A stretch of 64,000 bases of DNA, taken from assembly GCA_015178975.1 (NCBI GenBank), contig WHVD01000108.1:124001-188000 (forward strand), written 5' to 3'. The stretch comes from Hysterangium stoloniferum (lineage: Eukaryota; Basidiomycota; Agaricomycetes; Hysterangiales; Hysterangiaceae). The notes beneath the pieces are model-generated. The model was not told the origin of the DNA, searched no databases, and saw nothing but the letters and a program-made list of their open reading frames with translations. This document shows, piece by piece, positions 1 to 54,421 of this stretch. A program made the translations under genes and the position numbers. How positions within the stretch are numbered: the stretch's first letter is position 1; each line of letters begins with the position of its first letter.

Positions 1-2480
1 ATCCCTTCCACGATATACGTGTGTATGATAAATGTTGATGCAACCTCATCCAAGTTGGTGTGCAGCGGTGACTTGACTAAAACGTTGTATAGTGATGACG
101 TAATCAACGGTGACGCGTCTCTATCTACCCAACGGACGCCGGGGCAGTAAAAGAAGGCCGCAGCCAAGAATGTCATGAGCTTCATAGTGTGACTCTTGTC
201 GCTCCCGAAAGAAAATATCGGGAAACTCTCTAAAACCACTGTCGCTCTTCTCCGAATTTGAGGCGGGTATATAGGTCTACGACTCAGATGTGAGTATTTC
301 CAGTGTATTAAATGATTGAGGTCTACCTACCTCGCCAAATCAGCACTGTCTTGAACTAGTCTTCCTAGTCTTGGCAGCGTGAGATGCTTGTGTAGAAACT
401 TGCCAAAGGCACCATTGTCTCGTAACAAACGGGTGATTTCCCGGTATATTGTCAGCTTTGCGATCAGTGAAGCTGTCTTAGCACTGTGAAGGACTTTCAT
501 CCCAACCCTTTCCAAACCGACTCCACAGTAATACTCGCGGCCAATTTCAATACCTGACATTGTCCCCTGACTCCGTGAGATCATTCCCCAGTCATCGGCA
601 TGACTGAAATAGGGGCTGAGGTTGGATGTCGTGTTGGTGGATATCTTAACAACATTCGGTGGGTCAGGGTAGCCCGCTTCTCCTCGACACTGAAATGCTC
701 AGCATGTGACACATATCACATAGAAATAGAATTATACTTTACTCACCCACTCGTCAACCCAAATCTTTATATGGTTTGCAGACAGCTGTATGTGTTGCCT
801 ACCATCCCGATAACATAAATCATGGCCGGGTTCATTACAACCCCATCGTTCTCGAAGCTTCTCCCTGAATCTCTCTCTCATCTCTTTAACGATCTCGTCC
901 CGTTGCTCTGAACTCAATACACCGGGGGAAACTAAGGGTGGGAGTTCCTCAATGTCTTCAAGGTCGATCCCAGCCGTTGCCGAATTGTGATTCCCCGGAG
1001 TCGTCTCGTCGGAAGTAGACATTGGTGGGTAGCAGTCTTACTTACACGAGAAGGGGTGGCCTCGCCTTTATGCCCCCATTGGTCGGAGAGTTAATTCCAC
1101 CAAGGTACAGCCTTATGGCCGTGCTTACACAGGATTCACAGCATGTCATCCCTGCCATCGGAAGCAAAATCCCTTCACCTTCCTTGACCTATATAGATTC
1201 CAGTGGACGTAGTTACTTTACTACGTTCTTACGCCTTCTGCTGAAGGCTCACACAGTATCTAATAATAGTTTAGACAATTGTGACCCCATGATATAGTAT
1301 TTAAGGGTGTTATTGAGCGTCAGGGTTGAAAGTAAAACGGCTTTTCTCTTATTCGAGAAGTGGGATTACCTTGAATAATATAAATGCAGTGCAGAGCTAT
1401 GCTGATCCGCTGCCGCTTTCAAGTTGTCGTTGTTAACCTGAAAATTTTTCTTGCGAGAGTGCGGGCTGGCTGTTTAATTTTATCACAACCTTCAACGAGG
1501 AGAAACCCAAGGCAAGTGATGGTCTAGTCGGGTTGATGGCAAGCAACGTTGTTTCATCCTTCACCCTTGACATATCAATCGGCTTGAATTTTGTGCAACG
1601 TATGAACAAAACAAATAGTGACATAAGACCAAAGTTCTCATCGTAGATTTTCTTGAGGTACATAAGGGTCTGACTTGGAATTATTTTGATTATGGCGTGT
1701 CTATCAGAATTTGTATTGACAAATTGTACATACAATCGCGTGTCAAGTCATACTTACCCACAACAGGCTCTATTATTCCCTGTATGGCTGAATGGAATTG
1801 ATTCTTTGATACTGCGATGATCCCGTAGGTCAATGATTGTGACCCACCTGTAGCTTGAACTATTGCAGGCGGAGTTCTTCCAATATCTAAAGATTGACTA
1901 TGCCTGGCTGCGCTTGCACGTGTCCATTTCTGCAATCGGAGCTGTCCCTTCGTTGCTGCCCACTCCACTTTGAGCTCCACAAAGGTGGCCGTCACAGTCC
2001 CTCTTCTCTCCCACATGATGGTCATTCATCCCGGGTCTCAGTGTGTGACCCCAATCCATCCTTCATGTTCTCGTGTTTCATGATTGTTTGTCAAGGAAAT
2101 AATGAACTCTGTGGGTCATATGAACTTCTTAGCTGATCAATGGCTATTGTCATCAACAAATGGGTGTAGAAGATACGGTGCTTGCCAAGGTAATGCATCA
2201 TAATACAATGACTCTGAGGATGATCTTCAGTGCAGCAGGATCACAACAAAAATATTTCTTCAGAATACATTTGGGATCACTCGAAGACAGTTAAGCTTCG
2301 GAGTCCTGAGGCCAGACCAAAAATGACAGGAATTCCCTTTAAGACAGTGGCAATGAGAGTTACCCCGATTATTTCTTCGCCACATAATGTAGCAACTCTG
2401 TTCGATGTGATGGTGGCAAAGTAGATTAAGGATTGTGAAGCGCTGTGAGTCTTTGGCAATGTTAAAGCTGTCATCCATCT
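1..2480 (-). pseudogene. R-family unit 1 (blocks a-h), unrecognised multi-exon gene family
   Basis: Read on the minus strand this copy contains, in order, block a (about 2480-2410), b (2424-2260, motif GIPVIFGL), c (2025-1745), d (1690-1433, NSDRHAIIKIIPSQTLMYL), e (about 1200-1050), f (1022-735, with CNEPGHDLCYR), g (about 690-310, GVGLERVGMKVLH) and h (240 to the window edge). A GTAAGT donor after block c at about 1743 and an acceptor before the NSDRHA stretch look like a real intron of about 55 nt. I do not recognise the protein. Reading frames are interrupted between blocks, so this is probably a decayed copy. It is followed head to tail by another unit to its right. Confidence 0.6.
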
Positions 2481-3609
2481 GGCAGTGTCTCCTGGGCTAG
2501 CACCATTATGGCGACTAACTCACCAGCGATATTTGTGATAAAACGGCCTAGGACTACGCATAGGAAGGAACAGGTGACGACAACTAACTTTCAAAGTCCC
2601 ACGTATCTAGTCGACGATTGCATTAATATTAGATTGAATCAAATGACTGTTTTGCTACTATTCGAAATGAAATAATACAAACATGACAATTGGTGGAATG
2701 AACTCCAGTCGACTGGAGTGGGGAAATGTCAGGATAGCGAGTGAAATAAATTGACGTGGTGTGTAGTGTGACGTTAGCGACTGAAACATTGAAACACAAC
2801 ACAGACAGGACTTCTCGTGGATTGTCTGCTCCACACGGTTGTGGGTATTCTTCAGCTCTTAGCTGATATCTTCGCTGTTAAATTGTGTTAAATTATGTAG
2901 CTTCATACGACTTTCAAGTCCATATCTTGTTTGAAATGACTGTCATTTATAAATAGGATGTCAGTCTAGCCATGGGTGGTGCTTGCAAGTGTATTCAATG
3001 CATGTATGGCGTGCAACATGCAGAGCTCGCGGCAATGGTGAAAGATGACTGTATACGCTCTCATATTTGATCGACCTATGGCAGCTGTATTGTCACGTTT
3101 TCAATGAAAGAGAATCAATTCAGGATTTCGCCCAACACATTGACTCGCACGGTGTGAAGGCCCTCGGTTTTAAGACGATGGATCATGTCGATTGAAAACT
3201 GACCTGAAAGTATAATGAGCCTGAACGAGAGATGTATTGAAATGGCGAGGGGGGAGGCCTTGTTCAGACCTTCAATGATATCTTATTTAAAGCAAGTGTC
3301 GTTCATGGTTCGGGTCTTAGTCTAGGTACGGGTTGTGTCCCCAGATGTATTAAACACATGTATGGGGACAACTGCAGAGCTTGGGGTGATATTACAAAAT
3401 GACTATATGCGGTCGTACGTCAGCCCAAGTCATATAGCTTTATAACATCTGCAACCGCGGCTGCAACCGCGACGCTATTGGGCTCCTGCCGGTTTGGTTG
3501 AGATGTGTCGGCATTATCAAACAGAAATGATTAGGAAGTCTGTTCAATTAATGGTGCAAGACCTTTGTCAGGGCAACCATGTTCCTCCACCACTGATATG
3601 GGGGTCCAA
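2481..3609 (-). repeat. R-family spacer (blocks k-l) between units 1 and 2
   Basis: About 1.1 kb of non-ORF or weakly coding R sequence. It holds a perfect 14-bp palindrome, TCCAGTCGACTGGA, near 2703-2716 and the tract that elsewhere encodes block k (motif SIDKIHDLKTE on the minus strand). The same tract recurs at about 9160-10180, 18050-19060, 25200-26470, 33650-34980 and 46320-47250. It links the 3' side of one unit to the 5' side of the next, so it may hold the boundary or promoter of the unit. No autonomous feature is otherwise visible. Confidence 0.5.
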
Positions 3610-4409
3610 TTAGACCCTACCGACACGAGTGGAAGGTGTGGCGACCACGGAAAAAAAATAACGTGCGGTCGAATCTAAACCCTCAAGCGTGTACCTGACG
3701 GATTGGGCATTGCGCGAGCCGCGGATTATGTCACAATGTGGAAGAAGAGAAACGAGTGTGGCGATGGTGTCGAGGCTGTGCACTGTGTTACATGCAGATT
3801 CGTGCTCGGAACATCCAGCTATCAGGTTCAGAGTCAACTTGATTATTTGTGCGCCAGACGCAAGTAGGTCCCGACTTGGAATCGTGTGCGTCAGAATCTG
3901 ACTGGTAGGCAAGTTTCATAGGCGGAGGTCAGATGGTGCCGGAAGGTAAAATATTGTGAACGTACCGTACGATGGGCTTCATGAGTGAAGAAACCACTTT
4001 CAGCTGGTTAATGTGATCGGTGAGAAGTGTGCTGTCGTCAAAGAAGGGTTTCAAGCAGTGAATACTCCAATATAGTGAATGTAATGTCCCCAAATCAATG
4101 TTAAGTGTCAATGACGCTATATGTATGTTTATCCCGTCCAGTATAACATTTAATACAGCTCCAGCAATATCTCGAAACCATGCATCTTGGTGGATGCAAC
4201 ACGCGAGAAGCCGTATAGCATATTCAGGAAAGGAACGTCGTCGTGTGTGAGACTCTCTGTCATGGTGTTGGTGGGCAGAATGAAATGATGTGATGTCGCG
4301 ACACACCGTTGTAACCCGAATTCAATGTAACCTCTGATCGCCGTGAGCTCCTCTACAGATAGTTGACGCATGTGGCGGATCACTTTCATGATATGCACAA
4401 GGCCCAAAG

Positions 4410-4723
4410 TGTTAAATTGAATGGAAGCCTGGGGACCATAGTATGAGGACTCTCTACTATTGGAGTGTAGCCACTAAGAGTAGAGCGGTGTAGGTATTTG
4501 ACCGGTGATATTGCTAGGCTTCCAGACAAGGATCCTACTCCTTGTCTGGACTAACTATATACTATGTACATGGTCTGTGCACTGGTCTGTGCACGATGGC
4601 ATGCTACAGATCTAGTGAACACTAAACTAAATATACAGAATCACATAATATGAACTGGTCAGATCTATACAGTCACAAGATGAGATATGAGATTAGACTA
4701 AATGCATATCCCATATTCTAACA
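4410..4723 (-). mobile_element. Solo LTR, Copia-type (LTR family 1)
   Basis: A 314-bp insertion in R block h begins TGTTAAATTG and ends ATTCTAACA, with flanking 5-bp repeats caaag/caaaa. Relatives of about 310 bp lie at 15903-16211 and 31718-32033 and share internal stretches such as the one around the ACTATATACTA motif. On the minus strand the start TGTTAGAATATG resembles fungal Copia LTRs. It is a fossil with no internal coding domain. Confidence 0.78.
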
Positions 4724-4795
4724 CAAAATGGGAAAGGGATGATGAAATCCTGTTAGATAATGGGCAATGTGTATGATAAATGATGATGCAACCTC

Positions 4796-5216
4796 TGTTA
4801 GTAATCAAGTCTTCGTGTAAAATGTAACCGAAATATGGATCTGATGACGAATATATGCACATATATTGAGGTGCCGTCAAGAGGGGAATAACTCCTAATC
4901 ACAAATTTCTCCTTAATGATGCAATCGACTAGAAACTTCGAGTATCTAAATTTCCCCTATTTACTCTCCTAATATCTCTCCTAAAACAATTAGAAAGTAG
5001 ATAAAAAAGTCGCAATATTTCACCATATACCTCAGTGAAGTTTACTCACTCACTCACTGAGGTATATGCACAATCATGTATTATTCATTCTATTACTTAT
5101 TAAATATCTTGTAGCTTCGCAAACAGGTACTATAATATATAGTGAAGTTTACTCACTCACTCACTGAGCTTCGCAAACAGACTCAATCCTTTCGAAATCT
5201 TGTCTACTACTTAACA
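4796..5216. mobile_element. Solo LTR with internal hairpins (LTR family 2)
   Basis: A 421-bp insertion bounded by TGTTAGTAAT and CTACTTAACA is flanked by perfect 5-bp duplications, acctc at 4791-4795 and 5217-5221. Inside are strong palindromes built around a CTCACTCACTCACTGAGG motif near 5046-5063 and again near 5150-5167. A second copy in opposite orientation lies at 54849-55278. Fossil LTR; which internal region it belonged to is unknown. Confidence 0.8.
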
Positions 5217-6291
5217 ACCTCATCAAAGTTGGTGTGCAGTGGTGACTTGACCAGAACGTTGTACAGTGATGACATAATCACAGTTGACGCATCTCTATCT
5301 GACCAATGGATGCCAGGACACCACGTGAAGGCCGAAGCAAAAGATAGTATAAGTTGGGTAGTATGACCCTTGCTACTCTGCTGTACATAAAGTGTAGACA
5401 CTGGGAGCCTTTCTAAGATCATCACCACTCGTCTCCGAATTTGAAGTGGATATGTGGGTCTATGAAGACATCAGTATTTCAAGTGTATTCAACATTGACG
5501 CTGAGTTATCCCTACCTCATAAATCAACACTCTCTTGAACTAGTATTCCCAATTTTGGCAGGGTGAGATGCTTGTGTAGAAACTTGTTAAAGGCATTGTT
5601 GTATTGAGACAATCCACTCATTATTTGCCCGTATATTGTTAGCTTTACCATCAGCAAAGCTTTCTTTGCACTATGAAGGACTTTCATCCCAACCCTTTCC
5701 AAACCGACTCCACAGTAATACCTGGGGCCAATTCCAACACTTGAAGATGTCCCAAGACTCCATGAGATCATTCCCCAGTCCTCAGCATGACTGTGATATG
5801 GGCTGAGGTTGGATGTCGTATTGGTGGATATCTTGGACAACAATGGGTGGGTCATGGTAGGTCATTTCTCCTTGACACTGAAATCTGCCACATCTGACAC
5901 ATCACATGGAAATTGCATTATACTTTACTCACCAACTCATCAACCCAGACCTCTATATGGTTTTCAGATAGATGTATGTGCTGCTCATCATTGGGGGCCT
6001 GTAACATAAATCATGGCCAGGTTCATCACAGCCCCATCGTTCTTGAAGCTTCTCCCTGAATATTTCTCTCATCCCCTGAATGATCTCGTCCCATTGCTCT
6101 GAGCTCAATACACCCGGGGAAGCTAAGGGTGGTAGCTTCTCAATGTCTTCAATGTAGATCCCAGCCGTTGCCGAATTGTGATGCCCCAAAGTCGTCTCAT
6201 TGGAAGTAGACATATGGGTAGCAGTCTTCCCTACACAAGAAGGGGGTGCCTCACTTTGTGCTGCCATCACTCGGAGAGTTACTTCCACCAA

Positions 6292-8214: not shown

Positions 8215-9160
8215 CTAGGGGAGATGTGTCGGCATTATCGAAGAGAAACAATTATAAATCGGGCCAAATTGATCGAACAAGACCTTCCCCAGGCCAACGA
8301 TGTTTCTTCGCCGCTGGGACCACGTTGAAATTAGACGATACGTATGCGCCAGTGAAGGTGTGGTGTCGACACGTAAGAAGGAATTGGCGGTGAGAACTGG
8401 ACCTTCATAGTCGATCATGGATCCTTCGTTGATCGAACTGTGGATCGCGTCCCAATGTATGAGGAGAGAAACGAGAATGGCGATGGTATTGAAGCTGGGC
8501 ACAGTGGTACACGCGGGTCCGTGGTCGAGAGATCCACAGCTATCAGGATCAGACTAACCTCGATTATTTCTTCGCCGCATAATGTAGCAACTCTGTTCGA
8601 TGTGACAATGGAAAGGTAGATTAAGGATTATGAAGTACTGTGAGTCCTTGCCAATGTTAAAGCTGACATCTGGGAGTGTCTCCTTGGCTAGCACCATTAT
8701 GGCGACTAACTCACCAGCATTATTTTTGGTAAAACGGCCTGGAAGCCTCATAGTTATGTTCTGGGGGTTATTTTCCTCAAAATAGAGAGGTAAGTGGAAT
8801 TCTTGAAAGGTGTGGCGACTACGCATAGAAAGGAACAGGTGACGACAACTAACATTCAAGAGGCCCACGGATCTAGTCGATGAGTTCCTCAATATTAGAT
8901 TCAATCAAATGGCTTTTTTGCTACTACTCGAAATGAAACAATTCAAACATCACAATTAGTGGAATAAACTCCAGTGAACATAGATGGAAGCAATAGGGGA
9001 AATGTCGGGATAGCGAGTAAAATAAACTGTCGTGGCGCGTAGTGTCATGTTAGCGACTGAAACATTGAAGCGCAGAAATTTCTCGGGGGCTTAGCTTCTG
9101 TACGCGGCGGGTCGGGTATTGTATTCTTCAGATATGAGTTGATAAGTGATCCCACCTGAC
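8215..9160 (-). pseudogene. R-family fragment: block a joined to block j
   Basis: Minus strand. Block a is at 8904-8570 (ELVAIMVLAKETLPDVSFNIG) and is followed directly by a block-j-like stretch at 8545-8215 (FNTIAILVSLLIHWDAI). In unit 1 block a is followed by block b, so b-i are missing here. The same a-to-j join is seen on the plus strand at about 12540-12610, which points to an old deletion or an alternative unit type copied more than once. 8905-9160 is the palindrome-bearing spacer. Confidence 0.45.
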
Positions 9161-10188: not shown

Positions 10189-11868
10189 CTAATTGGACCT
10201 TACCGACACACGAGCGGAAGGAGTGGCTACGACGCAAAGGAAGGAACGCGCGGTGAAATCTAAAGTTTTAAGCGAGTAATCGAAGAATTTGTCGTTGGTC
10301 GAGCCGCGCATTACGTCACAATGTGGAAGGAGAGAAACCAGAATGTAGATGGTATCGAGGCTGCGCACTGTGGTACATGCGGATTCGGGCTCGGAAGATC
10401 TAGCTATCAGCTTCAGAGTAACCGCTATTATTATGTCGGCAGAATGCAAGAGCGCATAATGTTCCATCAGAATGAGACTGGTAGGACAGTTCCATGGGCG
10501 GATGTAAGACGGTGCTATAAGGTAAAATGTTGTGAACGTACCGTACGATGGGCCCAATGAGCGCAGAAACCACATTCAGCTGGTTGATGTGATCGGTGAG
10601 AAGCGTGCTGTCGTTGAAGAAGGTTTCCAAGGAGCGAATACTCGAATACAGTGAGTTCGACGTGTACCAATGAAGATGAAGTGTCAATGACGCCATATGC
10701 ATGCGTATGTCGTCCAATACAACCCTCAATACAGTGTCAACGATATCTCGAAACCATGCATGCAACATACGAGAAGCCGTATCGGATATTCATACAATCT
10801 AACTCGTGTCTGATATTCCCTGTTATGGTTTTGGTGGGAAGGATGAAATGGTGTGATGGCACGACGCACGGTTGTAACCAGAATTCAATGCAACCTCTGA
10901 TCGCTGTGAGCTCCTTTACAGATAGTGGACGCATGTGGCAGATCGTTTCCACGATAGAAAGAAGGCCCAAAAAGGGTAAGCGCGGATCAAATCCTGAGAC
11001 ACAGTGAGATTCTGAGAAATAACCGGCCATGTGTATGATAAATGTTGATGCAACCTCATCAAAGTTGGTGTGCAGCGGTGACTTGATTAAAACGTTGTAA
11101 AGTGACGTAATCACATGTGACGCGATGGCAGGTGACGCGTCTCTCTAACCGGTAAACGCCGGGGCAGTAAAAGAAGGCCGAAGCTAAGAATGTCTGGGCA
11201 GTGTGACCTTTTCCGCTCCGCCACATGTGACGTGAAAATATCAAACTACTTAAAACTTCCGTCGCTCTTCTCCGAATTTGAAGCGGGTATAGGTCTACGA
11301 CTCAGATATGAGTATTTCCCCAGTGTATTCAATGATTGATGTATCCCTACCTCGCTAAATCAGCACTGTCTTGAACTAGTCTTCCCAGTCTGGGCAGCGT
11401 AAGATACTTCTGTAGCAACTTGCTAAAGGCACCATCGTCTGGTGACAAACGGGTGATTTTCCGGTATATTTTCAGCTTTGCGATCAGCAAAGCTGTCTTA
11501 GCACTGTGAAGGACTTTCATCCCAACCCTTTCCAAACCAGCTCCACAGTAATACCTGGGGCCAATGTCAATACTTGACATTGTCCCCTGACTCCGCGAGA
11601 TCATTCCCCAGTCATCAGCACGACTGTAATAGGGGCTGAGGTTGGATGCTGTGTTGGTGGATCTCTTAACGTTCGGTGGGTCATGATAGCCCGTTTCTCC
11701 TTGACACTGAATGCGCAACATGTGACACACTTTGCATGGAAATAGCATTATACTTTACTCACCCACTCGTCAACCCAAATCTCTATATGGTTGGCAGACA
11801 GCTGTATGTGTTGCCTACCATCGGGGGCCCGATAACATAGATCATGGCTGGGTTCATTACAACCCTAC
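10189..11868 (-). pseudogene. R-family unit 3, blocks f (partial)-j
   Basis: Minus strand. The 3' part of block f ends near 11868, where a different sequence joins it. Then come g (11748-11347, with CQGETGYHDPPNVKR and GLERVGMKVLHSAKTA), h (11280-10740), i (10768-10400, LETFFNDSTLLTDHINQLNV) and j (10575-10189, SSEPESACTTVRSLDTIYIL). GTGAGT/CAG borders flank the f-g intron and GTAGGG/TAG borders the g-h intron. Block h runs into block i by a change of frame. Unrecognised product; probably decayed. Confidence 0.58.
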
Positions 11869-13770: not shown

Positions 13771-14419
13771 CGCTACCCACCAATGTCTACTTTCAATGAG
13801 ACGACTCCGGGGAATCACGATTCGGCAACGGCTGGGATCGACCTTGAAGACATTGAGAAACTCCCACCCTTAGTTTCCCCTGGTGTATTGAGTTCAGAGC
13901 AACGGGACGAGAACGTTAAAGGGATGAGAGAGATGTTCAGGAAGAAGCTTCAAGAACGATGGGGTTGTAACGAACCTGGCCATGATTTATGTTATCAGGC
14001 CCCGGATGGTAGGCAACACATACAGCTGTCTGCAAACCATATAGAGATTTGGGTTGACGAGTGGGTGAGTAAAGTATAATGCTATTTCCATGTGATGTGT
14101 CACATGCTGCGTATTCAGTGTCAAGGAGAAATGGGCTACCATGCCCACCGAATGTTGTTAAGATATCCACCAACACGGCATCCAACCTCAGCCCCTATTG
14201 CAGTCATGCCGATGACTGGGGAATGATCTCACGGAGTCAGGGACAATGTCAAGTATTGACATTGGCCCAGGGTATTGCTGTGGAGTCGGTTTGGAATGGG
14301 TTGGGATGAAAGTCCTTCACAGTGCTAGGACAGCTTCGCTGATCGCAAAGCTGACAATATACCGGGAAATTGCCCATTTGTTACGAGACGATGGTGCCTT
14401 TGGCAAGTTTCTACGCAAG

Positions 14420-15780
14420 TGTAGTGTATTCAGGGGATTCTCTTAGATAGCTCAATATATGCTATAGTGTCACAGAGCTTCAACAATAAAACAAGCAAAG
14501 GTCCAGTAATTTAAATACTGATAGATTAATGAGCTGCGCTATTAAGCTTAAACAACTTAAATCAATGCTTATTTTGATTATTGAAAGGTTCAAAAGAACA
14601 ATATATGACTCTTTTAGCAAATAAAAGAACTATTCCTTGAGAATAGGGGCTGGAAGCTGAATATATGTGCAGTAACTTGGCAGAGACTTGATATAAAGCT
14701 TCGGATTCTTGTATGCTTATTTGTAACTATTAGTAGTTATTTAAAAAGGTGTTAAATAATTTATTAATAGAGAAGATAATTTGTTTTGGATTATCTGAGT
14801 GCTTGTACTTGATTAATTCAATAAACTTAGGGCTGGGCCTTGAATAATCTAGTATTGGCAGGGATTTCAGTAAGGATACTTATTAGGTTTATTATGTAAT
14901 TAATAAACCTAAGGGTAGCTGTGAGGCTGGGGAACTTAGATGATTAGCTAAGTCCAAGAGTTGCTGACAAAGATTCAAGATGCTGCAAGTGTAGGTGCTT
15001 GCAGGTAGTGTATCAGACTAAGGCTATTATTGTCCTTAGGATGACGAGGTAAGCTTTTGTGCTGTACTGTAAAATATGTGTGTGATAGATTATTTTATTG
15101 GAAAGTTGGCCCTCCTTATATACATTTTGATAACTAAATGATTAGCTAATTATTTGGTTTATGAGGTCACTAGTTAAATCATAATGACCTCATATTCTAC
15201 TCATTATTTACCCTTTATTTATCACATGATTCCCCTCTCTGAGACAAGGGTTCTAAGCTTTGGCTTGAACATGAAGGTTCAAGGCCGCGGTCCCGGGGAC
15301 GGAATCAAATGATGAGTCGGCGGGATCAAATAATGACTCGGGGGTAGTCACATCCGTGACCTGTGTGACATCCCAACACCGTACTGTGACTTGTGTGACA
15401 GTCACTTGTGTGACAGTCACTTGTGTGACTAGTGTTACAGTCACTTGTGTGACTAGGGTTACAGTCACTCGTGTGACTGTGTGAGCCAGATTAGGTATTG
15501 TGTCATGTGACGCCCAAATGCACACATACAAGTAAGCAATGTGCCGGACAGTAATAACTAAGTAAATAAAATATAAATAATTAGTTAAAAATTATAATAA
15601 ATTAATTAAGTAATAATAGCATAATATGAGTCTGTATATGCTATTATTTATGTGAAGTCAAAAGGAATAAGGCCTATTTTTCACAATAAACATAGTAAAA
15701 ATACAATAAAAATTTGAAAGAATATTAAATAATCCACAGAAAATTAAGAGAATATTATGAGATGATGCTGATACATCACA
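14420..15780. mobile_element. Long solo LTR-like insertion, 1,361 bp
   Basis: It interrupts R block g and starts TGTAGTGTAT and ends ATACATCACA, near-inverted ends obeying the TG...CA rule. Perfect 5-bp duplications gcaag lie at 14415-14419 and 15781-15785. It is AT-rich apart from a GTGAC-rich tract at about 15330-15480 made of short quasi-palindromic repeats. No RT, gag or other coding domain is visible, so I read it as a fossil solo LTR of a large retroelement. Confidence 0.68.
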
Positions 15781-15902
15781 GCAAGCATATTATGCTGCCA
15801 AAACTGGGAAGACTGGTTCAAGAAAGTGCTGATTTAGTGAGGTAGGGATACCTCAAGCATTTAATACACTGGAAATACTCACATCTGAGTCATAGACCTA
15901 TA

Positions 15903-16211
15903 TGTTGAAATCTGCTAGCCTGGGAATCACAGTATGAGGACTCTCTACTGTTGGAGCATAGCCACTAACAGTAGAGCGGGTAGATGCTAAGCCAGTGATA
16001 TTGCTAGGCTTTCAGATGAGGGATCTACTCCTCATCTGAACTAACTATATACTAGTATACATGGTCTGTGCACTGGTCTGTACACGATGGCGTGCTACGG
16101 ATCTAGTGAACTTTAACTAAATATATCAATCACATGTGTGAACCAGCCGGAACCTATACAGTCACAGACAAGATATGAGATTACAGTTAATCACGTTATC
16201 ATATTCTAACA
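15903..16211 (-). mobile_element. Solo LTR, Copia-type (LTR family 1)
   Basis: A 309-bp insertion, TGTTGAAATC...ATTCTAACA, at the R g-h intron acceptor region, flanked by perfect 5-bp repeats ctata at 15898-15902 and 16212-16216. It is homologous over its length to 4410-4723 and 31718-32033. Fossil. Confidence 0.85.
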
Positions 16212-16553
16212 CTATATACCCGCCTCAAATTTGGAGAAGAGTGACGGAAGTTTTAAACAGTTTCCCGATATTTTCACACATACGGGGGAGCAGAAATGGT
16301 CACACTACTGAGCTTATGACATTCTTGGCTTGGGCCTTCTTTTACTGCCCCGGCATTTATAGAGACGCGTCACCAACGGCGATTACGTCCTCACTATACA
16401 ATGTTGTAGTCAAGTCACCACTGCACACCAACTTGGATGAGATTGTATCAACATTTATCATACACATCGTCCGTTCTCTATCAGAATTTGATCAGGACTT
16501 ACCCCTTTTCATCCTTATGTATATTATGGAAGCGATCTGCCACATGCGTCCAC

Positions 16554-17276
16554 TTTTTTTTTTTTTTTTTAAAATACATTTATATACCGCATCACATAAC
16601 GAAGATACATAGCAGTTGGGGAGAGAACTACCCTAACGGTCAGTGGAGAAAAGGTGGGATGTGAATGCAGCGGATTGGGATACATGGGAGGGTCTAATGC
16701 AGGGCAGGGGTGATTAGGTCTTCCAGAAAGCGTCTGAGGCGGCAATGAACTCAGCTAGGGCTTCAAGGCCCTTGTGTGTGCCGAGGATGATGGGGAGTGA
16801 CAATGCTCCTCATAAAGGGGGCACTCGGAAAGGATGTGGAGTCGAGATTGCATGTCAGTTTCCCACAGGGGCAGGTGGTGGGGAGGTCGGGGAGGAAGCG
16901 GTTGTAGTAGGCGCCGAGGAATCTGTGGCCAGTGATGGTTTGGATGATGCATGTGTGGATGTGGTGGGGGCCCCCATATTCTTTGTGGAACTTGGCCAGT
17001 TTGAGGGCAGGGGGTTTGTGGAGTCCAATGGCAGTGAGGTTGGTGTGGGGGAGGTGGTGCCAATCCTGGTGCCAGACTTTTAGGGAGCACGCTTTTGCAC
17101 GTTCCAAGGCCCAGGAGACTGTGGAGTGCAGGATGGGGGGGTGCAGGTTGACGGCTTCCTTTGCAAGGGAGTCGGCCTCCTCATTGCCTTGGAAGCCATT
17201 GTGGCCTGGGACCCAGGAGAGGGAGACATCATGGGAGGGGTTGGTTAGGAAATTGTCAATATGCTTTCGAAAGATC
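16554..17276 (-). mobile_element. 5'-truncated non-LTR retrotransposon (LINE, Tad1-like), RNase H end
   Basis: A 723-bp insertion in R block h. A T-run at 16554-16571 is the poly(A) tail on the minus strand, and imperfect 13-bp duplications (CACATGCGTCCAC and CACGTGCATCCAC) flank it at 16541-16553 and 17277-17289. The minus-strand ORF (part of 17464-16763) encodes the end of an RNase H domain, with motif LSWVPGHNGFQGNEEADSLA, then the C-terminal segment with TGHRFLGAYYNRF and a CPCG motif, as in fungal Tad1-clade LINEs. Endonuclease and reverse transcriptase are absent, as expected from 5' truncation. The first part of the ORF is read-in from R block h, not LINE. Confidence 0.85.
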
Positions 17277-18046
17277 CACGTGCATCCACTATCTGTAGAG
17301 GAGCTCACGGGGATCAGAGGTTGCATTAAATTCTGGTTACAACCATGCGTTGTGCCATCACACCATTTCATCCTTCCCACCAAAACCATAGCAGAGAATA
17401 TCAGAGACAACAACTGAACTTTTATGAATATCCTACACGGCTTCTCGTGTGTTGCATGCACCAAGATGCATGGTTTCGAGACATCGCTGGAGCTGTATTG
17501 AGGGTTTTATTGACGACATACACATGCATATAGCCTCATTTACACTTCATCTTGATTGGTACACGTCGAACTCACTGTCTTGGAGTATTTTATCCTTGGA
17601 AACCTTCTTCAATGACAGCATGCTTCTCACCGATCATGTCAACCAGCTGAATGTCGTTTCTTCATTCATTGGGCCCATCGTACGGTATGTTCACTATGCT
17701 TTATCTTCCAGCACTGTCTTACATCCACCCACGAAACTGTCCTACCAGTCTCATTCTGACCCAGACAACTCCTAATCGGGATCTCCTTGGGTATGGTGAG
17801 TGAATAATCGCATTGACTCTGAAGCTGATAGCTGGATCTTCCGAGCCTGAATCTGCGTTGATCACAGTGCACAGCCATGATACCATCCCCATTCACATTT
17901 CTCTTCTTCCACATTGTGACATTATGCGTGGCATGACCAACGACAAATTCTTCAATTATTCGGTTAAAGATTTAGATTTCACTGCGCAGTCCTTCCTTTG
18001 CGTGGTCGCCACACCTTCCACTTGTGTGTCAGTACGGTCCAATTAG

Positions 18047-35955: not shown

Positions 35956-37997
35956 TGCCACGTGCCCAGGACACATTTTATATGGACTTTAATGAGTATT
36001 TCACATATGTACCCAAGAAGAAATTATGGAAGCCACGTCAAAGTGGGTTTTCCATAGGGCACATTCATTTTGTCAATATTGCCAGTGGGGAAAGATTCCA
36101 CCTCCGTACTTTGCTCACTGTTGTCAAAGATGCCACCTCATTTGAACAGCTCAAGACTTTTCAGGGTGAGACTTATCCCACATTTCAGCAAGCCTGTGTT
36201 GCACATGGTTTGCTTGAAGATGACTGCCAGTGGCACATGTGCCTCACAGAAGCCAGTCACATAGAGTCTGGGTTTCAACTTCGCAGATTGTTTGCTATCA
36301 TTTTGACCATGTCCTCCCCTGCACAACCCCATGAACTCTGGAATGACTTTAAAGTATTTCTTTGTGATGATTTGAAGTTCATACTTCAGCAACAACATGG
36401 TATTGTCAATCCATCACCAAACAGCATTTATGACTTTGGTCTCTATGAGATTGATAAGATCCTCCACTATTCTGGAAAGTCCCTCTCACACTATCCAACC
36501 ATGCCAAACTGCACTGATGTTTGGCATGGGATTCTTGGCAACTGTCTTATTAAGGAGCAGTCAGATTATGATGTTGATGTTGAGCATGCCAGTGCCCAAG
36601 CTAATCTTGAAAAGTGCAATCCTGAACAATGAGCTGCCTTTGAGACTATCATGAAGGCAGTAGATGAGGAGCAGCAGGGCAAGTTGTTTTTTGTGAATGG
36701 TCCAGGTGGCACTGGGAAGTCCTTTGTGTGGAATACTCTGGCACATGCATGTTGTGCCAAGGGCTATATTGTGCTTTGTGTGGCATCTTCTGGAATTGCA
36801 TGAATGATTCTTAAGGATGGTCACACTTCTCACAGCACATTTTCAATCCCCGTTCCCTGTGAGAAGGATGCTCTATGTCATATCAAAAAGGGTTCAGAAA
36901 AAGCAGAGCTCATGAAGAATGTCTGACTGATTATCTGGGATGAAGTTCCAATGCAGTCACATTTCACATGTGAGGCAGTTGACAGAACCCTGAGAGATTT
37001 ATTAGACAAGGAGGATCTTCCCTTTGGAGGGATTCCTGTTGCCTGGGGAGGTGACTTTCAGCAGACTTTGCCTGTTGTACCAAAGGGTTCAAAAGAACAG
37101 ATCATTGGACAATGTATCCAGAAATCAGAACTGTGGAAGCATATCAAGGTACTCTTCTTGAAAAAGAATATGTGGGTGGACCAGGATGATCCAGACAGTC
37201 AACAGTTTGCTCAGTGGCTATTGGATATAGGCCATGGAAAGGATTTACCTTTGGATCATACAATGGATATCCCTCCTCATATGATCTGTGGTCCAGAAAT
37301 GTCTAATATAATTGCTGAGATATATCCAGACATCCATGTGGATAGAGACCAAAGGGATTCACAAGATGAAGACTTCTTAGACCAGGCAATTCTGTATCCA
37401 AGGAATTCAGAAATAGATGAGATTAATTCAGAACTTTTGAATAAATTCCCTGGAGAGAGTCGTATGTACCACAGTGCTGATACTGCAGAGGGAGACAGTG
37501 AGACAGAGATGTATCCTGTAGAGTATTTGAATGGCCTGAATTTTGGTGGAATCTCACCAAGTCGACTTGAGGTGAAGCCAGGAGTACCTTTGATACTGTT
37601 ATGGAACATAGATCCACAGAGGGGGCTTTTCAATGGGACACGATTGCAACTGGTGAAAATGGAAAATCATTTGCTTCAAGTGCGGATTCTAACTGGACCA
37701 TGTACTGGAAAAATGGCATTTCTTTCACGGATCAAAATAATTACAAATGATGATCAACTGCCATTTAAACTGCATCGTATTCAGTTTCCAGTGCAGTTGT
37801 CATTTGCAATGACAATTAACAAGTCACAGGGACAGTCTTTGAAAGTGGTAGGAATAGATTTGAGAATGGCAGTGTTTGGACATGGGCAATTGTATGTGGG
37901 ACTTTCAAGGGGAAGAAGTTGGAATAGGATAAAAATATTATTAAAGGAGAAAAAGAGAACAGCAAATATAGTGTACCAAGATGTATTATTAGATTGA
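35955..37997 (+). pseudogene. Helitron Rep/Hel C-terminal part: PIF1-family helicase with three in-frame TGA codons
   Basis: One reading frame spans 35955-37997. The first part (to 36632) is the segment that precedes the helicase in fungal Helitrons (SFEQLKTFQGETYPTFQQAC; LFAIILTM). The helicase shows Walker A GPGGTGKSF (about 36698), Walker B LIIWDE (about 36930), WGGDFQQTLPVV (about 37050), NKSQGQSL (about 37820) and the last motif YVGLSRGRSW (about 37893). TGA codons interrupt it at 36630, at about 36802 and at about 36924; at the first and third the family usually has Arg or Gln (CGA or CAA to TGA is plausible). The last 349 codons are uninterrupted. The ORF's apparent first 13 residues (from 35916) come from R sequence. 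Confidence 0.85.
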
Positions 37998-39832: not shown

Positions 39833-39840
39833 AATGGACT

Positions 39841-39914: not shown

Positions 39915-39929
39915 GCATCCTCCTCTCCT

Positions 39930-41165: not shown

Positions 41166-41204
41166 CTGTGGCTTCCATTTGTGACTGATGTTTCTGTTTG
41201 TAGA

Positions 41205-44935: not shown

Positions 44936-46009
44936 CATCCCTACCTCACTAAATTGGCAGTGTCTTGAACTAGTCTTCCCAGTCTTGGGATTGTAAGATG
45001 CCTGTGTAGAAACCTACTAAATGCACCATCATCTCGAGACAATCCTCTCATAATGTCCCTGTATATTGTCAGCTTTGGGATCAGTGAAGCTTTCTTTCCA
45101 CTGTAAAGGACTTTGGTCCTGACCCTTTCCAAACCGACTCCACAATAATACCTGGGGCCAATTTCAATACTTGACAATGTCCCATGACTCTGTGAAATCA
45201 TTCCCCAGTTTTCAGCATGACTGTCCTATTACAAATAGTATTAGTTGGCTTATTGTAATACACAATCTACAAGTGGTAATAGACTTGTAATAATAGTACT
45301 TGTTTGTCAATCAATGTGTCAGTTAGTGAATCACCTTCTGACTTGATAGGTAGGATGCTAGTTTAGGTGTACACTGGTTCTGGCATGCATTAACCTCAGA
45401 AAACATGGTCCACAATTAGCATCCTCCTATGAAAAAGTGAACCCCCCCTAGAAAAAAGGGTGGTTTCATCACCAATTCCAACATGCGATATGGGCTGAGG
45501 TTGTATGTCATGTTGGTGGATATCTTGAAAACTGTGGCTGGGTCATGGCAGGTCGTTTCTCCTTGACACTGAAATGTGCCACATGTGACACAGATCACAT
45601 GGAAATAGCATTATACTTTCCTCACCAACTCGTTAACCCAGCCCTCTATATGTTTTGCAGATAGCTGTATGTGCTGCTCATCATCGGGGGCCCGATAACA
45701 TAAATCATGGCCGGGTTCGTTACAGCCCCATCGTTCTTGAAGCTTCTCCCTGAATATCTCTCTCATCCCTTGAATAATCTCGCCTCGTTGCTCTGAGCTC
45801 AATACACCCAGGGAAACTAAGGGTGGTAGCTCGCATTGTCTTCAAAGTAGATCCCAGCCGTTTCCGAATTGTGATTCCCCAGAGTCGTCTCTTGGAAGCA
45901 GACATTGTTGGGTAGCAGTCTCACTTACACTAGAAGGGGGTGCCTCGCCTTTATGCCGCCATCACTCGGAGAATTAATTCGACCAAGGTACAGCCTCACG
46001 CGGTGGGTC
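44936..46009 (-). pseudogene. R-family unit, blocks e-g, with an inserted short LTR
   Basis: Minus strand: block e at about 46000-45930, f at about 45905-45625 (CNEPGHDLCYRAPDDEQHI), then g split by a 257-bp LTR into about 45560-45489 and 45221-44941 (GVGLERVRTKVLYSGKKAS). The f-g splice borders are kept. Unknown function; frames interrupted in f. Confidence 0.52.
45227..45483 (-). mobile_element. Short solo LTR-like element (LTR family 3)
   Basis: A 257-bp insertion, TATTACAAAT...AATTCCAACA, in R block g. The flanks tgtcc/tgcga are imperfect versions of the tgtga found at the uninterrupted R site. Homologous to 11919-12188 and 43084-43361. Fossil. Confidence 0.68.
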
Positions 46010-46320: not shown

Positions 46321-49274
46321 TCACTCAACGACCTTACAGTCGTCGTGGGTATTCTTCAGCTGTTAGTTAACCGGTGATTTCACCTGAAATGACCACGAGC
46401 TACCTTTCTCTTTTCCAAGGTGAAAGCTTGCGACATGTCGGTGTCTAGATCAGGGTGTTTGTTGTCCATTAGTTTGGCCCGGCTTCCTGTACTCCCAAAC
46501 AAATGACACGAAAATAACGGTGGGACCGCCTTCTTTGAGGCGTCCTAGTGGTATTCTATTGAAATTGTTCTCGCTAAATATGCCATGTGATTTCAGGGAC
46601 GGGTGGTCCTCGGAATATATTTAACACCAGTCTAGAGAACCTCGCAGCGACCATTACAAGTGACTATCCGCTTTTACATTTTGTCAAATTATGTAGTTTC
46701 ATACAATTTTCGAGTCCACGTTCTGTTTGAAATGATTGTCATTTATGAATAGGATGTCAGTCTAACCACGGGTGGTGCCCTCAACTGTATTCAATGCATG
46801 TATGGGATCGGTGCGTGCAACATTCAGAGGTCGCGGCAATGATGAAATGTGACTGTATGCACTCTTATATTTGGTGGACCTATGGCAGCTGTATTGTCAA
46901 GTTTTCGATGGAAGAGCATTAGTTTAAGGAATTCGCGCAAGAGATTGACTCGTTTGGTGTGAAGGCCCTCGGTTTTAAGATCGTGGATCTTGTCAATTGA
47001 ACACTGGCCTGAAGGTATGATAAGCCTGAACGAGACATCCATCGAAATGGCGACGGGGGAGCCATTTTTCACACCTCCATTGATATTTTATTTAAAACGA
47101 GTGTCATTAATGACTGGGATGTTAGTATGGCCAAGGCTAGTTCCCCAAAATGTATTCAACACCTGCACGAGTACAAGCCGCAGTGTTCACGGCGATGGCA
47201 AAAAGTGGCTATATGCGCTCTTACATTGGGTCAAGCTATATATCTTAATACATTTTTTCAAATCTGGTTGCAAAGTGGATTAAAGGTGGACGGGGTTGTG
47301 CTCCTCCTGGTTAGGTTGAAATGTGTCGGCATCATCGAAGAGAAATGATTAGGAAGTGTATCCAATTGATGGTGCAAGACCTTTGTCAGGGCAACTATGT
47401 TCCTCCAACAGTGATATAGGGGTCTAATCAGACCCCACCGACACACGAGTGGCAGGTGTGGCGACCACGCACAGGAGGAACGCGCGGTGAAATCCAAACG
47501 GCCAAGCATGTAACTGATGGATTCGTCATTGGTCGAGCAGCGCATTACGTCACAATGTGGAAGGAGAGAAATGAGCATGCGGATGGTATCGAGGCTGCGG
47601 ACTGTGGTGCATGCGGATTCGGGCTCGGAAGATCCAGCTATCAGCTTCAGGGTCAACTCGAGTATTCTTTCGCCAGACCACAGGAGATCTCGATATGGAA
47701 ACGGGTGCGTCAGAATCAGACTGGTAGAAAAGGTTAATAGGCGGATGTGAAACGGTAAAATATTGTGACAGTACCGTACGATGCGCACAATGAACGAAGA
47801 AACCACATTCAGCTCGTTGATGTGATCGGTGAGAAGCGTGCTGTCGTTGAAGAAAGTTTGCAAGGAGTCAATACTCCCCCACAAGAAACGTAATGTCTCC
47901 AAATCAAGAGGACGTGTCAATGACGCTAGGTGCACGTTTATGTCGCCCAATATAACCCTCAATACCGCTGCAGCAAAATCTCGAAACCATGCATCTTGGT
48001 GGATGCAACACACGAGAAGCCGTATAGGATATTCAGATTGGGAAATAAGTCGCCGGTGACTTTGTCTGTCAAGCTATTAGTGGGCTGCATGAAATAATGT
48101 GAGGTCGCGACGCACGCTTGTAACCAGAATTCAAAGTAACCTCCGATCGCCGTGAGCTCCTCTACAGATAGTTGACGCACGTCGCAGATCGCTTCCACGA
48201 TATACACAAGGCCGAAAAGGGGCAAGGGATGACCAAATTCTGACAGAAAACGGGCGATGTTTATAAATTTTGAGGCAACCTCATCAAAGTGGGTGTGCAG
48301 CGGTGACTTGACTAAAACTTTGTAAAGTGATGACGTAATCGCAGTTGACGCGTCTCTTTCTGACCAAAGGACGCCAGGACACCACTTGAAGGCCAAAGCT
48401 AAAGATAGCATAAGTTGGGAAGTATGGCCTTTGCTACTCTGCATGCTAAATGAAGACACCCGGGAATCTTTTAAAATCCTGCTCGCTCTTCTCCGAATTT
48501 GAGGCGGGTATGTAGGTCTACGCAGACATAAGTATTTCAAGTATCCAATGATTGACGCTGAGGTATCCCTACTTCATTAAATCAACACTCTCTTGAAGTA
48601 ATCTTCCCAATCTTGGCAGGGGGAGACGCTTGTGTACAATCTTGCTAAAGGCACCCTTGTCTTGAGACAATTGACTCATTATTTTCCCGTATAATGTCAG
48701 CTTTGCGATCAGTGAAGCTTTCTTTGCAATGTGGAGGACTTTCATCCCAACCCTTTCCAAACTGACTCCACAGTAATACCTGGGGCCAATTTCAATACTT
48801 GAAGATGTCACAAGACTCCGTGAGATCATTCCCCACTCCTGGCCATGACTATGATACGGGCTGAGGTTGTATGTCGTATTGGTGGATATCTGAACAACAG
48901 TGGGTGGGTCATGGCAGGTTGTTTCTCCTTGACACTGAAATCTGCCGCATATGACACATCACATGGAAATAGCATTTTACTTTACTCACCCACTCATCAA
49001 CCCAGACCTCTATATGGCTTGCAGATAGTTTTATGTGCTGCTCTTCATCAGGGGCCCGATAACATAAATCATGGCCGGGTTCATTACAACCCCATCGCTC
49101 GCGAAGTTTCTTTCTGAATATCTCTCTCATCCCCGTCTTAATGATCTGGTCCCGTTGCTCTGAACTCAATACACCTGGGGAAACTAAGGGTGGTAGCTCC
49201 TCAACGTCTTCAAGGTAGGTGTGAACCATTGCCTCATTGTGATTCCCCAGAGTTGTCTCGTTGAAAGCAGACAT
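46321..49274 (-). pseudogene. R-family unit, blocks f-l, long continuous copy
   Basis: Minus strand: block f 49274-48990 (CNEPGHDLCYRAPDEEQHI), a GTGAGT donor at about 48988, g (about 48930-48570, GVSLERVGMKVLHIAKKAS), h (48540-47959, SLYKVLVKSPLHTHFDEVA; RQLSVEELTAIGGYFEF), then a 251-codon ORF 48013-47258 joining i (CIHQDAWFRDFAAAVL; LLTDHINELNVVSSF) and j (SSEPESACTTVRSLDTIRML). Block k lies at 47072-46824 (SIDKIHDLKTE). A GTGTGT...CTGCAG segment near 48016-47971 could be an intron. The i-j fusion in one frame is the longest single R ORF in the window, so i and j are probably one coding region. Confidence 0.58.
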
Positions 49275-50040: not shown

Positions 50041-50449
50041 GGCATCATAGACAGCGCCCCAAGTATTGAGCACATGTAGGCCCTTAATTGCAACCCATCT
50101 ACCAGCTGAATGTGGTTTCTTCGCTCATTGGGTTCATCTTAAGGTACGTTCACATTATTTTACATTACAGTTCCGTCTTACATCCACCAATGAAACTGTC
50201 ATACAAGTCTGATTCCGATGGAAGCAAGTCCAAATTACCCGTTCTTGCATTCTGCCGAGATAATAATAGTGGTTACTCTGGCGCTGATCACTGAATCTTC
50301 CGAGCCTGGACCAGCATCATCTGCGTGTACCATACATAGTGCGCAGCCTCGATACCATCGCCATGCTGGTTTTTTTTCTTCCATATTGTGACATAATACG
50401 TGGCTCGAGCAATGACCAATCTATCAGTAAGTCCATCGGAGTTCGTATA
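50041..50449 (+). pseudogene. R-family fragment i-j, plus strand
   Basis: The end of block i (QLNVVSSLIGFILRYVHII at 50095-50155) followed by block j. It is parallel to 57522-57780, where the same block enters the MULE ORF, and both continue into the same downstream sequence (CAAATTGTGCCTATAA), so the two loci are copies of one chimeric segment. Confidence 0.5.
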
Positions 50450-52011: not shown

Positions 52012-52486
52012 TGTTCTGTTGAAACAGTTGAATAACTCTTGACAAACACCCTGTGAGTTTGAGGAAAGTAAACACTAAGGAGACTTTCCCACACCCACAG
52101 TGGAGTATACTACAGGGTGCTTACCTAAGCACCTACACATCAGTTACCTTACTAGGTAACTCACTCAATACTGCACCTACAGCGCTGGGAAAAATACTAC
52201 AAATATCAGAAAAATATAGGGAACATCATAGACTATGTAAGAGCTGTAATATCATACTCTAACATGTTCTTTGTGTGAGTGTGAGGAAAGTAAACACTAA
52301 GGAGACCTTCCCACACCCACAGTGGAGTATGCTACAGGGTGCTTACCTAAGCACCTATACATCAGTTACCTTACTAGGTAACTCACTCAATACTGCACCT
52401 ACAGTGCTGGGAAAAATACTACAAATATCAGAAGAATATAGGGAACATCATAGACTATGTGAGAGCTGTAATATCATACTCTAACA
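52012..52486 (-). mobile_element. Tandem pair of Copia-type LTRs
   Basis: Two head-to-tail copies ending CTCTAACA at 52264 and 52486. The second is 222 bp (52265-52486), and over that length the two differ at only a handful of sites. The first has a longer 5' flank. On the minus strand both begin TGTTAGAGTATGATATTAC, the Copia-type start. No internal domain remains. Fossil. Confidence 0.72.
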
Positions 52487-52760
52487 CTTTGAACACCAAT
52501 ATGGGGCTCTAATTATACCCTTCCAATACACAAGCAGAAGATGTGGCAATTACGCAAAGGAAGGAACGTGTAATGAAACCTAAAAGCTCAAGCCAGTAAA
52601 TGATGGATTAGACATTGTTCGAGCCGCGCATTCTGTCACACTGTGGAAGAAGAGAAATGAGCGTGGTCATGGTATCGAGGCTGCGTACTGTAGTACATGC
52701 AGATTCAGGCTCGGAAGATCCGGCTCTCAGCTTCAGAGTAACCGCCATAACCATCAGTCA
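52487..52760 (-). pseudogene. R-family block j fragment
   Basis: Block j in minus orientation, seen antisense in the plus-strand ORF at 52615-52851. It is cut at about 52755, where unrelated sequence begins. Confidence 0.45.
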
Positions 52761-53455
52761 TCCAAGTGTTGCTTTCACACACAAGCTAAAACATCTGGGA
52801 AGCTCGCCGATTTTCTCTCACCTGCAAAATCAAGTCAAGCAGAGTTTCTGATGCCAAATTCTGTATGCAAAGCAATTGGCAGAACTTCATGCAGAATTAC
52901 ATCGAACCGGGACTTAAAACGTTTGGTTTTCTGACAAATGAGGAGGGTCAGGCACTCGAAGGCAGTCTGATCAGTGCATGACTGAGCATGCGAAGCAATT
53001 GTGGAACTCGCTGCATGCAGAGAAAGAAGACCCGGAAAGTTGGGGGAGTCGGAATGCGTTTGTGAGTGAGTATTTCAGCAACAATATGTGAACCAAATTT
53101 CCCGAATTTCGGTGGTGGGAGGGCGATTTGAAGGTTCAAGCATTTGCGACAATGCAGTATCCAGGCTGGGTTGGCCAAACTCAGAAATCAAGTGAAATTA
53201 TCATATGTAGGCCTCCCCTCCCCACGGCGTTATCATTAACCTCACCAGTGATGAGCAATCCCAGTTCTTCATCATTGTTACCTCCATCCATAGACGGACA
53301 TTGCACGCTTTCGATTACAACTGGCCACTCCATTGTTCTGCGAAAGATATATTATCAAGGACACTTCTCAAGAACGGTAGCTACTCTCTCTATCGAGACA
53401 CTTCGATTAACTGTATTCCTCATTACTGCCTTAAAGGAAAAATAACTTAGTCCTG
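52760..53455 (+). pseudogene. Degenerate protein-coding fragment, unassigned
   Basis: A plus-strand frame near 52980-53165 reads EHAKQLWNSLHAEKEDPESW, then FVSEYFSNNM, then FPEFRWWEGDLKVQAFATMQ, separated by stops. The W-x-L-x-x-E-K-x-x-P-x-x-W and F-x-x-C/W-x-x-x-x-K-x-x-x-x-A-T pattern resembles a family of uncharacterised agaricomycete proteins as I remember it; this is tentative. The right third (53320-53440) is shared with 46150-46300. Confidence 0.4.
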
Positions 53456-54421
53456 TTATGCAATTGATGGTGCAAGACATTTGTCCGGGCAACTATGTTC
53501 CTCCAACACTGATATATGTGGTCTAATTAGACCCCACCAACACACAAGTAGCAGGTGTGGCGACCACCCAAAGGAAAGAAGGCGCAGTGAAATATAAACT
53601 CTTGAGCGAATAACTACTGATGTCCTGGTCATTGGTCGAGCTGCGGATTATGTCACAATGTGGAAGGAGAGAAATGAGCATGGGGATGGTATCGAGGCTG
53701 CGTACTGTGGTACATGTGGATTCGGGCTCCGAAGATCCAGCTATCAGCTTCATAGTCAATTCGATTATTCTTTTGCCAGACGCCAGGAGATAGTAATCAG
53801 GACTCGTTTGCGTCAGAATCAGACTAGTAAGAAAGTTTCATAGGCGGATGCAAGATGGTGTAGGTAAGTAAAAGATTGTGAACGTACTGTAAGACGAAGA
53901 AACCACATTCAGCTGGTAGATGTGATCGGTGAGAAGCATGCTGTCGTTGAACAAAGTTTGCAGGGAGGAAATACTCCAATACAGTGCATTTGATGCCTTT
54001 AAGTCAATATGAGATGTCAATGACGCTGTATGCACGTTTATGTTGTCCAATATAACCCTCAATGCCTCTGCACCAAAATCTCGAAACCATGTATCTTGGT
54101 GGATGCAACACAAGAGAAGGCGTATAGGACAGTCATAATGGAGAGATAGTCGCCGGTGACTTTGTCTGTTATGGTTTTGATGGGAAAGATGAAACGGTGT
54201 GAGGTCGCGACGCACGTTTGTAACCAGAATTCAAAGTAACCTCTGATTGCCGTGAGCTCCTCTACAGATAGTTGACGCACATGGCAGATCGCTTCCACGA
54301 TATACACAAGGCCGATAATGGTCCAGGAATCATGAAATTCTGATAGATAACGGGTTATGTGTGTGATAAATGTTGATGTAACCTCATCCAAGTTGGTGTG
54401 CAGCGGTGACTTGACTAAAAC
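53456..54421 (-). pseudogene. R-family unit, blocks h-j, cut by the MULE inverted repeat
   Basis: Minus strand: block h from 54421 (VLVKSPLHTNLDEVTSTFI; RQLSVEELTAIRGYFEFWLQ), i (54215-53838, CIHQDTWFRDFGAEALRVIL) and j (53759-53523, SSEPESTCTTVRSLDTIPML). Block h ends exactly where the terminal inverted repeat starts at 54422. Confidence 0.55.

What the first reader, a model, noticed from the sequence alone, without database searches (positions are those of the whole stretch)
1..54421. An undescribed, intron-bearing, multi-copy gene-like family (R) fills much of the window
About a dozen copies of the same ordered blocks occur on both strands, with conserved splice borders (GTGAGT/CAG between f and g; GTAGGG/TAG between g and h) and no reverse transcriptase, integrase or transposase in any of them. 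Intron retention argues for DNA-level spread, by tandem duplication or an unknown DNA element. I cannot match the protein to any family.
Basis: partly seen in the sequence, partly recalled or inferred. Interest (0 to 1): 0.75.

Follow-up and report, generated by a model that had tools for sequence, protein, structure and literature searches.

The report
Giant tandem orphan gene family, fungus
The repeated blocks are pieces of a real five-exon protein gene that this fungal genome carries in several hundred copies, many lined up head to tail, and the protein resembles nothing in the libraries searched.

Summary
The window carries 17-18 pieces of one gene family ("R") on both strands. One is complete and intact (26,488-28,379, minus strand); the rest are cut, frameshifted, split or run off the window. 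Among 18 aligned copies from elsewhere in the same 111-Mb genome, 12 give an open spliced frame of 541-555 codons. Frame-breaking indels are almost absent from exons 1, 2, 4 and 5 and common in the flanks. A 35-base exon-2 word occurs 444 times (up to 3 mismatches; control 0). I placed 323 exon-2 copies on 35 of 554 contigs; 82 of 103 close neighbours share orientation. A distant subfamily sits mostly on contigs of its own. Copies are mosaics, so they recombine. R is most likely a hugely amplified host gene family spread by tandem and segmental duplication with gene conversion, not a transposon. Pfam, NCBIfam, PHROGs, PADLOC, PDB and viral contigs give no credible relative. The product may be helical and intracellular. 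Its function is unknown; a recognition or conflict role is my guess. No expression data and no relative's genome were available.

The parts
21..1022 (-). R copy (subfamily A): E1 747-1022, E2 330-689, start of E3 21-275; continues beyond the window edge
   Evidence: no stops; exon-4 match at C11:123587-123859 just left of the window
3622..6213 (-). R copy, probably one gene split by about 0.8 kb: E5 3622-3897, E4 3965-4255, E3 end 4309-4404 | E3 start 5213-5458, E2 5520-5846, E1 5936-6213 (frameshifted)
   Evidence: that the two parts are one gene is inference
8350..8520 (-). E5 relic
10192..11864 (-). R copy with broken frames in E3/E4, truncated in E1
13783..18043 (+). R copy: E1 13783-14064; E2 frame break near 14,240-14,273; insertions at 14,420-15,782 (within E2) and about 16,553-17,237 (within E3); E4 17467-17685; E5 17750-18043 with one stop
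   Evidence: an RNase H ORF (16,763-17,506 -) overlaps the second insertion
19508..20080 (+). diverged E2/E3 relic
24407..25199 (-). 5'-truncated R copy (end of E3, E4, E5 with one stop), abutting the next copy
   Evidence: homology spans this junction in L008-L010
26488..28379 (-). complete R gene, 555 codons: E1 28098-28379, E2 27683-28041, E3 27191-27628, E4 26850-27140, E5 26491-26785, stop 26488-26490
   Evidence: ATG, four GT-AG introns of 56, 54, 50 and 64 bases, no stop inside
29912..30103 (-). E5 relic with a stop
32467..32933 (+). diverged E2/E3 relic
34984..35958 (-). 5'-truncated R copy (part of E3, E4, E5)
44944..45832 (-). R remnant: E2 in two parts, part of E1
47477..49274 (-). 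nearly complete R copy (subfamily B): E1 48990-49274, E2 48572-48934, E3 48118-48516, E4 47774-48064, E5 from 47719 with a frame break near its end
50339..50428 (+). E5 fragment
52527..52751 (-). E5 fragment with a stop
53526..54421 (-). 5'-truncated R copy (end of E3, E4, E5)
57533..57739 (+). E5 fragment in the frame of the long ORF 56,345-57,778

Best explanation
R is a host protein-coding gene family of a basidiomycete-like fungus: a five-exon, four-intron gene for a protein of about 545 residues. It multiplied at the DNA level by head-to-tail tandem duplication (unequal crossing over), with some segmental copying to other contigs. Recombination or gene conversion keeps the copies mosaic (birth-and-death evolution). 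Transposons then insert into the arrays and break copies, which gives the mosaic in this window. Shown: gene structure at sequence level, open frames, selection on the frame, copy number as lower bounds, array geometry, mosaicism. Inferred: the duplication mechanism. Guessed (about 0.3 on its own): the protein is an intracellular, mostly helical recognition or conflict protein for which diversity is useful.
For: Eleven of 18 aligned copies have an open spliced frame of 541-555 codons and all eight GT/AG borders; a twelfth (L014) is open but lacks the last acceptor AG. Non-triplet indels per kb over 153 pairs: 7.7 and 5.3 in the flanks, 0.05, 0, 0.38 and 0.38 in E1, E2, E4 and E5. dN/dS 0.74, codon-bootstrap 95% interval 0.64-0.86. 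Simulated neutral substitution leaves no stop in 0.4-5.2% of runs. 444 copies of a 35-base exon-2 word, control 0. Of 103 neighbouring exon-2 places under 15 kb apart, 82 share orientation, p = 1e-9. The distant subfamily C (42-56% identity per exon to A and B for the second copy in L035) has the same five exon blocks in tandem with other spacers, and homology stops close to the gene ends. 138 of 150 subfamily-C places lie on contigs absent from the capped list. Site incompatibility within 20 sites is 0.35 against 0.49 when sites are shuffled, lowest of 200 shuffles 0.465. Spacers without frame conservation.
Against: No transcript, protein or relative's genome was seen. Six of 18 aligned copies are broken. 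Of ten more distant loci fetched, only three (L025, L031, L032) gave a full open spliced frame: L030's model ended after 356 codons and six had stops, frame breaks or missing parts. Most window copies are broken. dN/dS is close to 1 in exons 3 and 4 (0.86 and 0.92, both intervals including 1). E3 shows 3.3 non-triplet indels per kb, which I read as gaps split by the aligner in a length-variable stretch but did not prove. Some places stand alone on their contig in the lists (C46, C33, C539), which simple tandem duplication does not explain. 21 of the 103 close neighbours are in opposite orientation, and L013 and L017 hold inverted neighbours. The array statistics use listed places only: 150 scored of 1,367 candidates and 100 of 444.
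Confidence: 0.72

Rival explanations
1. R is a new kind of self-mobilising DNA element whose five-exon gene is its own unrecognised transposition protein.
For: Several hundred copies, a few of them alone on their contig in the lists; introns kept; no known domain.
Against: No common element ends seen: homology runs through the spacer into the next copy and, between subfamilies, ends close to the gene. Neighbours are mostly on one strand. Target-site duplications and terminal repeats were not searched for at isolated copies.
Confidence: 0.1
2. R is a selfish gene family that favours its own inheritance, as the wtf genes of fission yeast do (named from memory).
For: Hundreds of fast-evolving, recombining, intron-bearing orphan copies among transposons.
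Against: No functional data, and I did not look for paired poison and antidote products. The copy number is far above what I recall for known drivers.
Confidence: 0.1
3. R is a non-functional, decaying repeat whose open frames are leftovers of recent amplification.
For: Weak constraint (dN/dS 0.74); most window copies and seven of ten more distant fetched loci are not fully open; introns diverge slightly less than nonsynonymous sites (0.122 against 0.139).
Against: Indels in E1, E2, E4 and E5 rarely break the frame while those of the flanks do. Copies as different as subfamilies A and B include full open spliced frames with the same introns, and a subfamily-C copy has five exon blocks without stops. 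By my count of the listings 133 of 150, 144 of 150 and 124 of 150 scored exon matches have no stop, though those lists are chosen by similarity.
Confidence: 0.08

Closest known systems
Large birth-and-death multigene families in tandem arrays (effector, surface-antigen and receptor families of eukaryotes; recalled, not tested by homology)
   Same: Head-to-tail arrays, shared exon structure, mixture of intact copies and pseudogenes, mosaic copies, fast protein change
   Different: No known domain; no clear N-terminal signal sequence by simple hydropathy of three proteins; several hundred copies in one fungus
Fungal NACHT/ankyrin receptor genes such as the one at 60,794-63,075 in this window
   Same: Gene in the same region, likewise without an evident secretion signal in what was read (not tested)
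   Different: R has no NACHT or ankyrin match in Pfam
Copia and non-LTR retrotransposon pieces and the Helitron-like helicase that interrupt or flank R
   Same: Share the same stretches of genome
   Different: R has none of their Pfam domains and keeps its introns

Membership tests
Tandem birth-and-death gene family | Neighbouring copies in the same orientation at short spacing | tested here: met
   82 of 103 neighbours under 15 kb on one strand; median spacing of 165 neighbour pairs 11.2 kb
Tandem birth-and-death gene family | Common exon-intron structure across subfamilies | tested here: met
   Same four intron positions in A and B members; order of five exon blocks kept in C
Tandem birth-and-death gene family | Intact copies together with pseudogenes | tested here: met
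   12 of 18 open; broken window copies
Tandem birth-and-death gene family | Exchange between copies | tested here: met
   Clustered site incompatibility among 12 subfamily-A copies; distance correlation 0.60 for E1-E2 and -0.15 to 0.32 for the other nine exon pairs
Tandem birth-and-death gene family | Copies are expressed | not testable with these tools
   No transcript data
DNA transposon | Transposase or known mobilisation domain | tested here: not met
   No Pfam match over cut-off for R; none at E 0.01 for nine upstream ORFs
DNA transposon | Discrete common ends | tested here: not met
   Homology passes through spacers into neighbours in the fetched arrays
DNA transposon | Target-site duplication | not tested
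Retrotransposon or retrocopy | Loss of introns, reverse transcriptase in the unit | tested here: not met
   Introns kept in the aligned copies; no reverse transcriptase domain in R
NACHT/NLR-like receptor | NACHT or NB-ARC domain | tested here: not met
   Pfam scan of seven spliced proteins
Secreted effector family | N-terminal signal peptide | tested here: inconclusive
   N-terminal hydropathy at most 0.25 in three proteins; no dedicated predictor was run

The most novel reading that the evidence does not exclude
R is a new, hyper-amplified class of intracellular recognition or genetic-conflict protein with a fold not yet solved. Hundreds of recombining genes in arrays of hundreds of kilobases to over a megabase would give one fungus a large, rapidly changing repertoire.
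Probability: 0.2. Interest if true: 0.8.

Novelty: new member of a known kind. Interest (0 to 1): 0.5.

Why it matters
A family of several hundred, perhaps over a thousand, copies, many of them open, would be a very large fungal gene family by my recollection, and gene predictors or repeat maskers may hide it as repeats or hypothetical proteins. It offers a case for asking what keeps so many copies open while their sequence drifts, and for separating gene families from transposons in repeat-rich fungal genomes.

Tried and rejected
Transposon with a boundary at 25,200: first suspected because many copies shared an alignment end there, but the other copies run on past it; that end is a junction of this copy that L008-L010 share. 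A break near L004:1868 is a deletion relative to L012, L020 and others. Telomere-linked arrays: TTAGGG x4 occurs 11 times on seven contigs; two of these (C112, C179) hold two and one listed subfamily-C places, far from the match, and none is an R-rich contig. AlphaFold of E4-E5 (mean pLDDT 46) and E3 (54) gave all-helix models too weak for a fold search, so none was run. Viral contigs: 23 pattern matches, none a relative. PDB: best E 0.096; Pfam SIR2_2 0.087 in one of seven and HAAS 0.27; PHROG 0.022 in two of seven; PADLOC 0.024 in one of seven; all treated as chance. Positive selection: codons 326-367 give dN/dS 1.47, but the interval 0.93-2.51 includes 1; exchange between copies makes such tests unsafe. 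The resemblance of 'CNEPGHDLCY...HIQLS..HI.VWV.E...GE...DPP' to a motif of other mushroom proteins is recalled, not tested. Searches ended in script errors and were redone.
Full report
Observation. Self-comparison shows a dispersed family on both strands. The window lies in a genome of 111,116,353 bases in 554 contigs, at C11:124,001-188,000.

Gene structure. Twenty loci with long matches to the window copy were fetched, chosen by DNA similarity and not by open frame; 18 of the 20 were aligned, leaving out L010 and L019. The conserved gene has E1 (MST...WVDEW), E2 (CQGE...ADLAR), E3 (P[IT]YPPQIR...FWLQP), E4 and E5 (mostly ending in ...SN). GT donors are present in 16, 18, 18 and 17 of 18 copies and AG acceptors in 18, 18, 18 and 17 of 18. 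The spliced frame is open over 541-555 codons in 12 of 18; L004, L007, L008, L009, L013 and L020 are broken. L010 and L019 show all five exons of their main copy without stops but were not spliced. In the window, the copy at 26,488-28,379 minus is complete with 555 codons. Of ten more distant loci, L025, L031 and L032 gave full open spliced frames; L030's model ended after 356 codons; L026, L027, L028, L029, L033 and L034 had stops, frame breaks or missing parts.

It is under selection as a protein. Over all 153 pairs of the 18 copies, indels not divisible by three run at 7.7 and 5.3 per kb in the 500-base flanks but 0.05, 0, 0.38 and 0.38 in E1, E2, E4 and E5; E3 has 3.3, together with 5.3 triplet indels, in a length-variable stretch. 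Over 15 sequences with open frames (105 pairs; L014 included), mean dN is 0.139, dS 0.188, intron divergence 0.122 and 5'-flank divergence 0.192. Pooled dN/dS is 0.74, bootstrap interval 0.64-0.86: constrained, but weakly. Neutral substitution at 0.05-0.09 per site leaves a stop-free frame in 0.4-5.2% of runs.

Copy number and layout. A 35-base exon-2 word with up to 3 mismatches occurs 444 times; the reversed control occurs 0 times. A subfamily-C exon-2 query filled another 150, 86 of them on contig C522, from 15.6 kb to 1.28 Mb. The listed exon-2 places (150, 100 of the 444, and 150) merge to 323 distinct places on 35 of 554 contigs. Without the subfamily-C search, 188 places lie on 23 contigs, with median neighbour spacing 11.2 kb and 82 of 103 close neighbours on the same strand. 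In L004, L015, L016, L020 and L021 successive exon-1 matches on one strand start 5.8-6.1 kb apart; L013 and L017 hold inverted neighbours. In L035 two subfamily-C copies start 3.2 kb apart; L036 is less regular.

Subfamilies. The B and the related L031 protein share 67-69% of residues with an A protein. The second C copy of L035 matches A and B at 42-56% per exon and keeps the order of five exon blocks. 138 of 150 C places lie on contigs absent from the capped list. DNA homology between C and A/B ends close to the start codon and a little past the stop, so the gene, and not a surrounding element, is what is conserved.

Exchange. Among 12 subfamily-A copies and 171 informative sites, site-pair incompatibility within 20 sites is 0.35 against a shuffled mean of 0.49 (lowest of 200 shuffles 0.465). 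E1 and E2 distances correlate (0.60); the other nine exon pairs correlate at -0.15 to 0.32. Copies are therefore mosaics.

What surrounds it. Transposon pieces lie in and between copies: an RNase H fragment in the copy at 13,783-18,043, a copia gag ORF at 51,378-51,821 and a PIF1-type helicase at 36,927-37,997 in the window, and in L022 ORFs that read like a copia element (by eye, no domain search). The stretch upstream of exon 1 shows no frame conservation, and nine ORFs from that region have no Pfam match at E 0.01.

What the protein is. Seven spliced proteins have no credible match in Pfam, PHROGs or PADLOC, their profile none in the PDB, one spliced protein none in NCBIfam, and IMG/VR no relative. 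Two partial AlphaFold models are all-helical but below useful confidence. In three proteins hydropathy shows no clear signal peptide; the highest 19-residue average is 1.74, in L016. An intracellular helical protein is a reasonable inference, no more.

Interpretation. Tandem duplication by unequal crossing over, followed by gene conversion, decay and transposon insertion, explains the arrays, the mosaic copies, the truncated copies next to full ones and the contig preference of subfamily C. Copies that stand alone in the lists need segmental or ectopic copying. A mobile element is disfavoured but not excluded: of the stand-alone places asked for only two could be fetched, and both proved to lie in subfamily-C arrays. 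A role in recognition or genetic conflict is suggested only by copy number, fast change and exchange.

Literature. Five searches were read as listings and abstract openings only; none named such a family. This does not show that it is unpublished.

Noticed in passing
36,927-37,997 (+): PIF1-type helicase ORF (Pfam PIF1 1.1e-31), probably a Helitron-like element; the ORF 35,910-36,632 upstream has no Pfam match.
   Followed up: partly
38,448-41,657: Dense minisatellites of 18-20 and about 37 base units (one of 18 bases x25 at 98% match) with long frames on both strands that look like repeat artefacts.
   Followed up: no
60,794-63,075 (+): NPHP3_N/NACHT-type ORF followed by an ORF with nine ankyrin stretches; a 99-base tandem array lies at 62,262-63,153.
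   Followed up: partly
56,345-57,778 (+): 477-codon open frame that ends in an R exon-5 fragment; no Pfam match over cut-off. It reads like a GCM/MULE-type element (recalled, not tested).
   Followed up: partly
52,052-52,486: Two near-identical 222-base tandem copies (96% match), unexplained.
   Followed up: no
G000 contigs C316, C63, C547: R exon-2 matches with equal scores on different contigs (C316:5104, C63:92503, C547:342477) suggest recent segmental copies or uncollapsed haplotypes.
   Followed up: no
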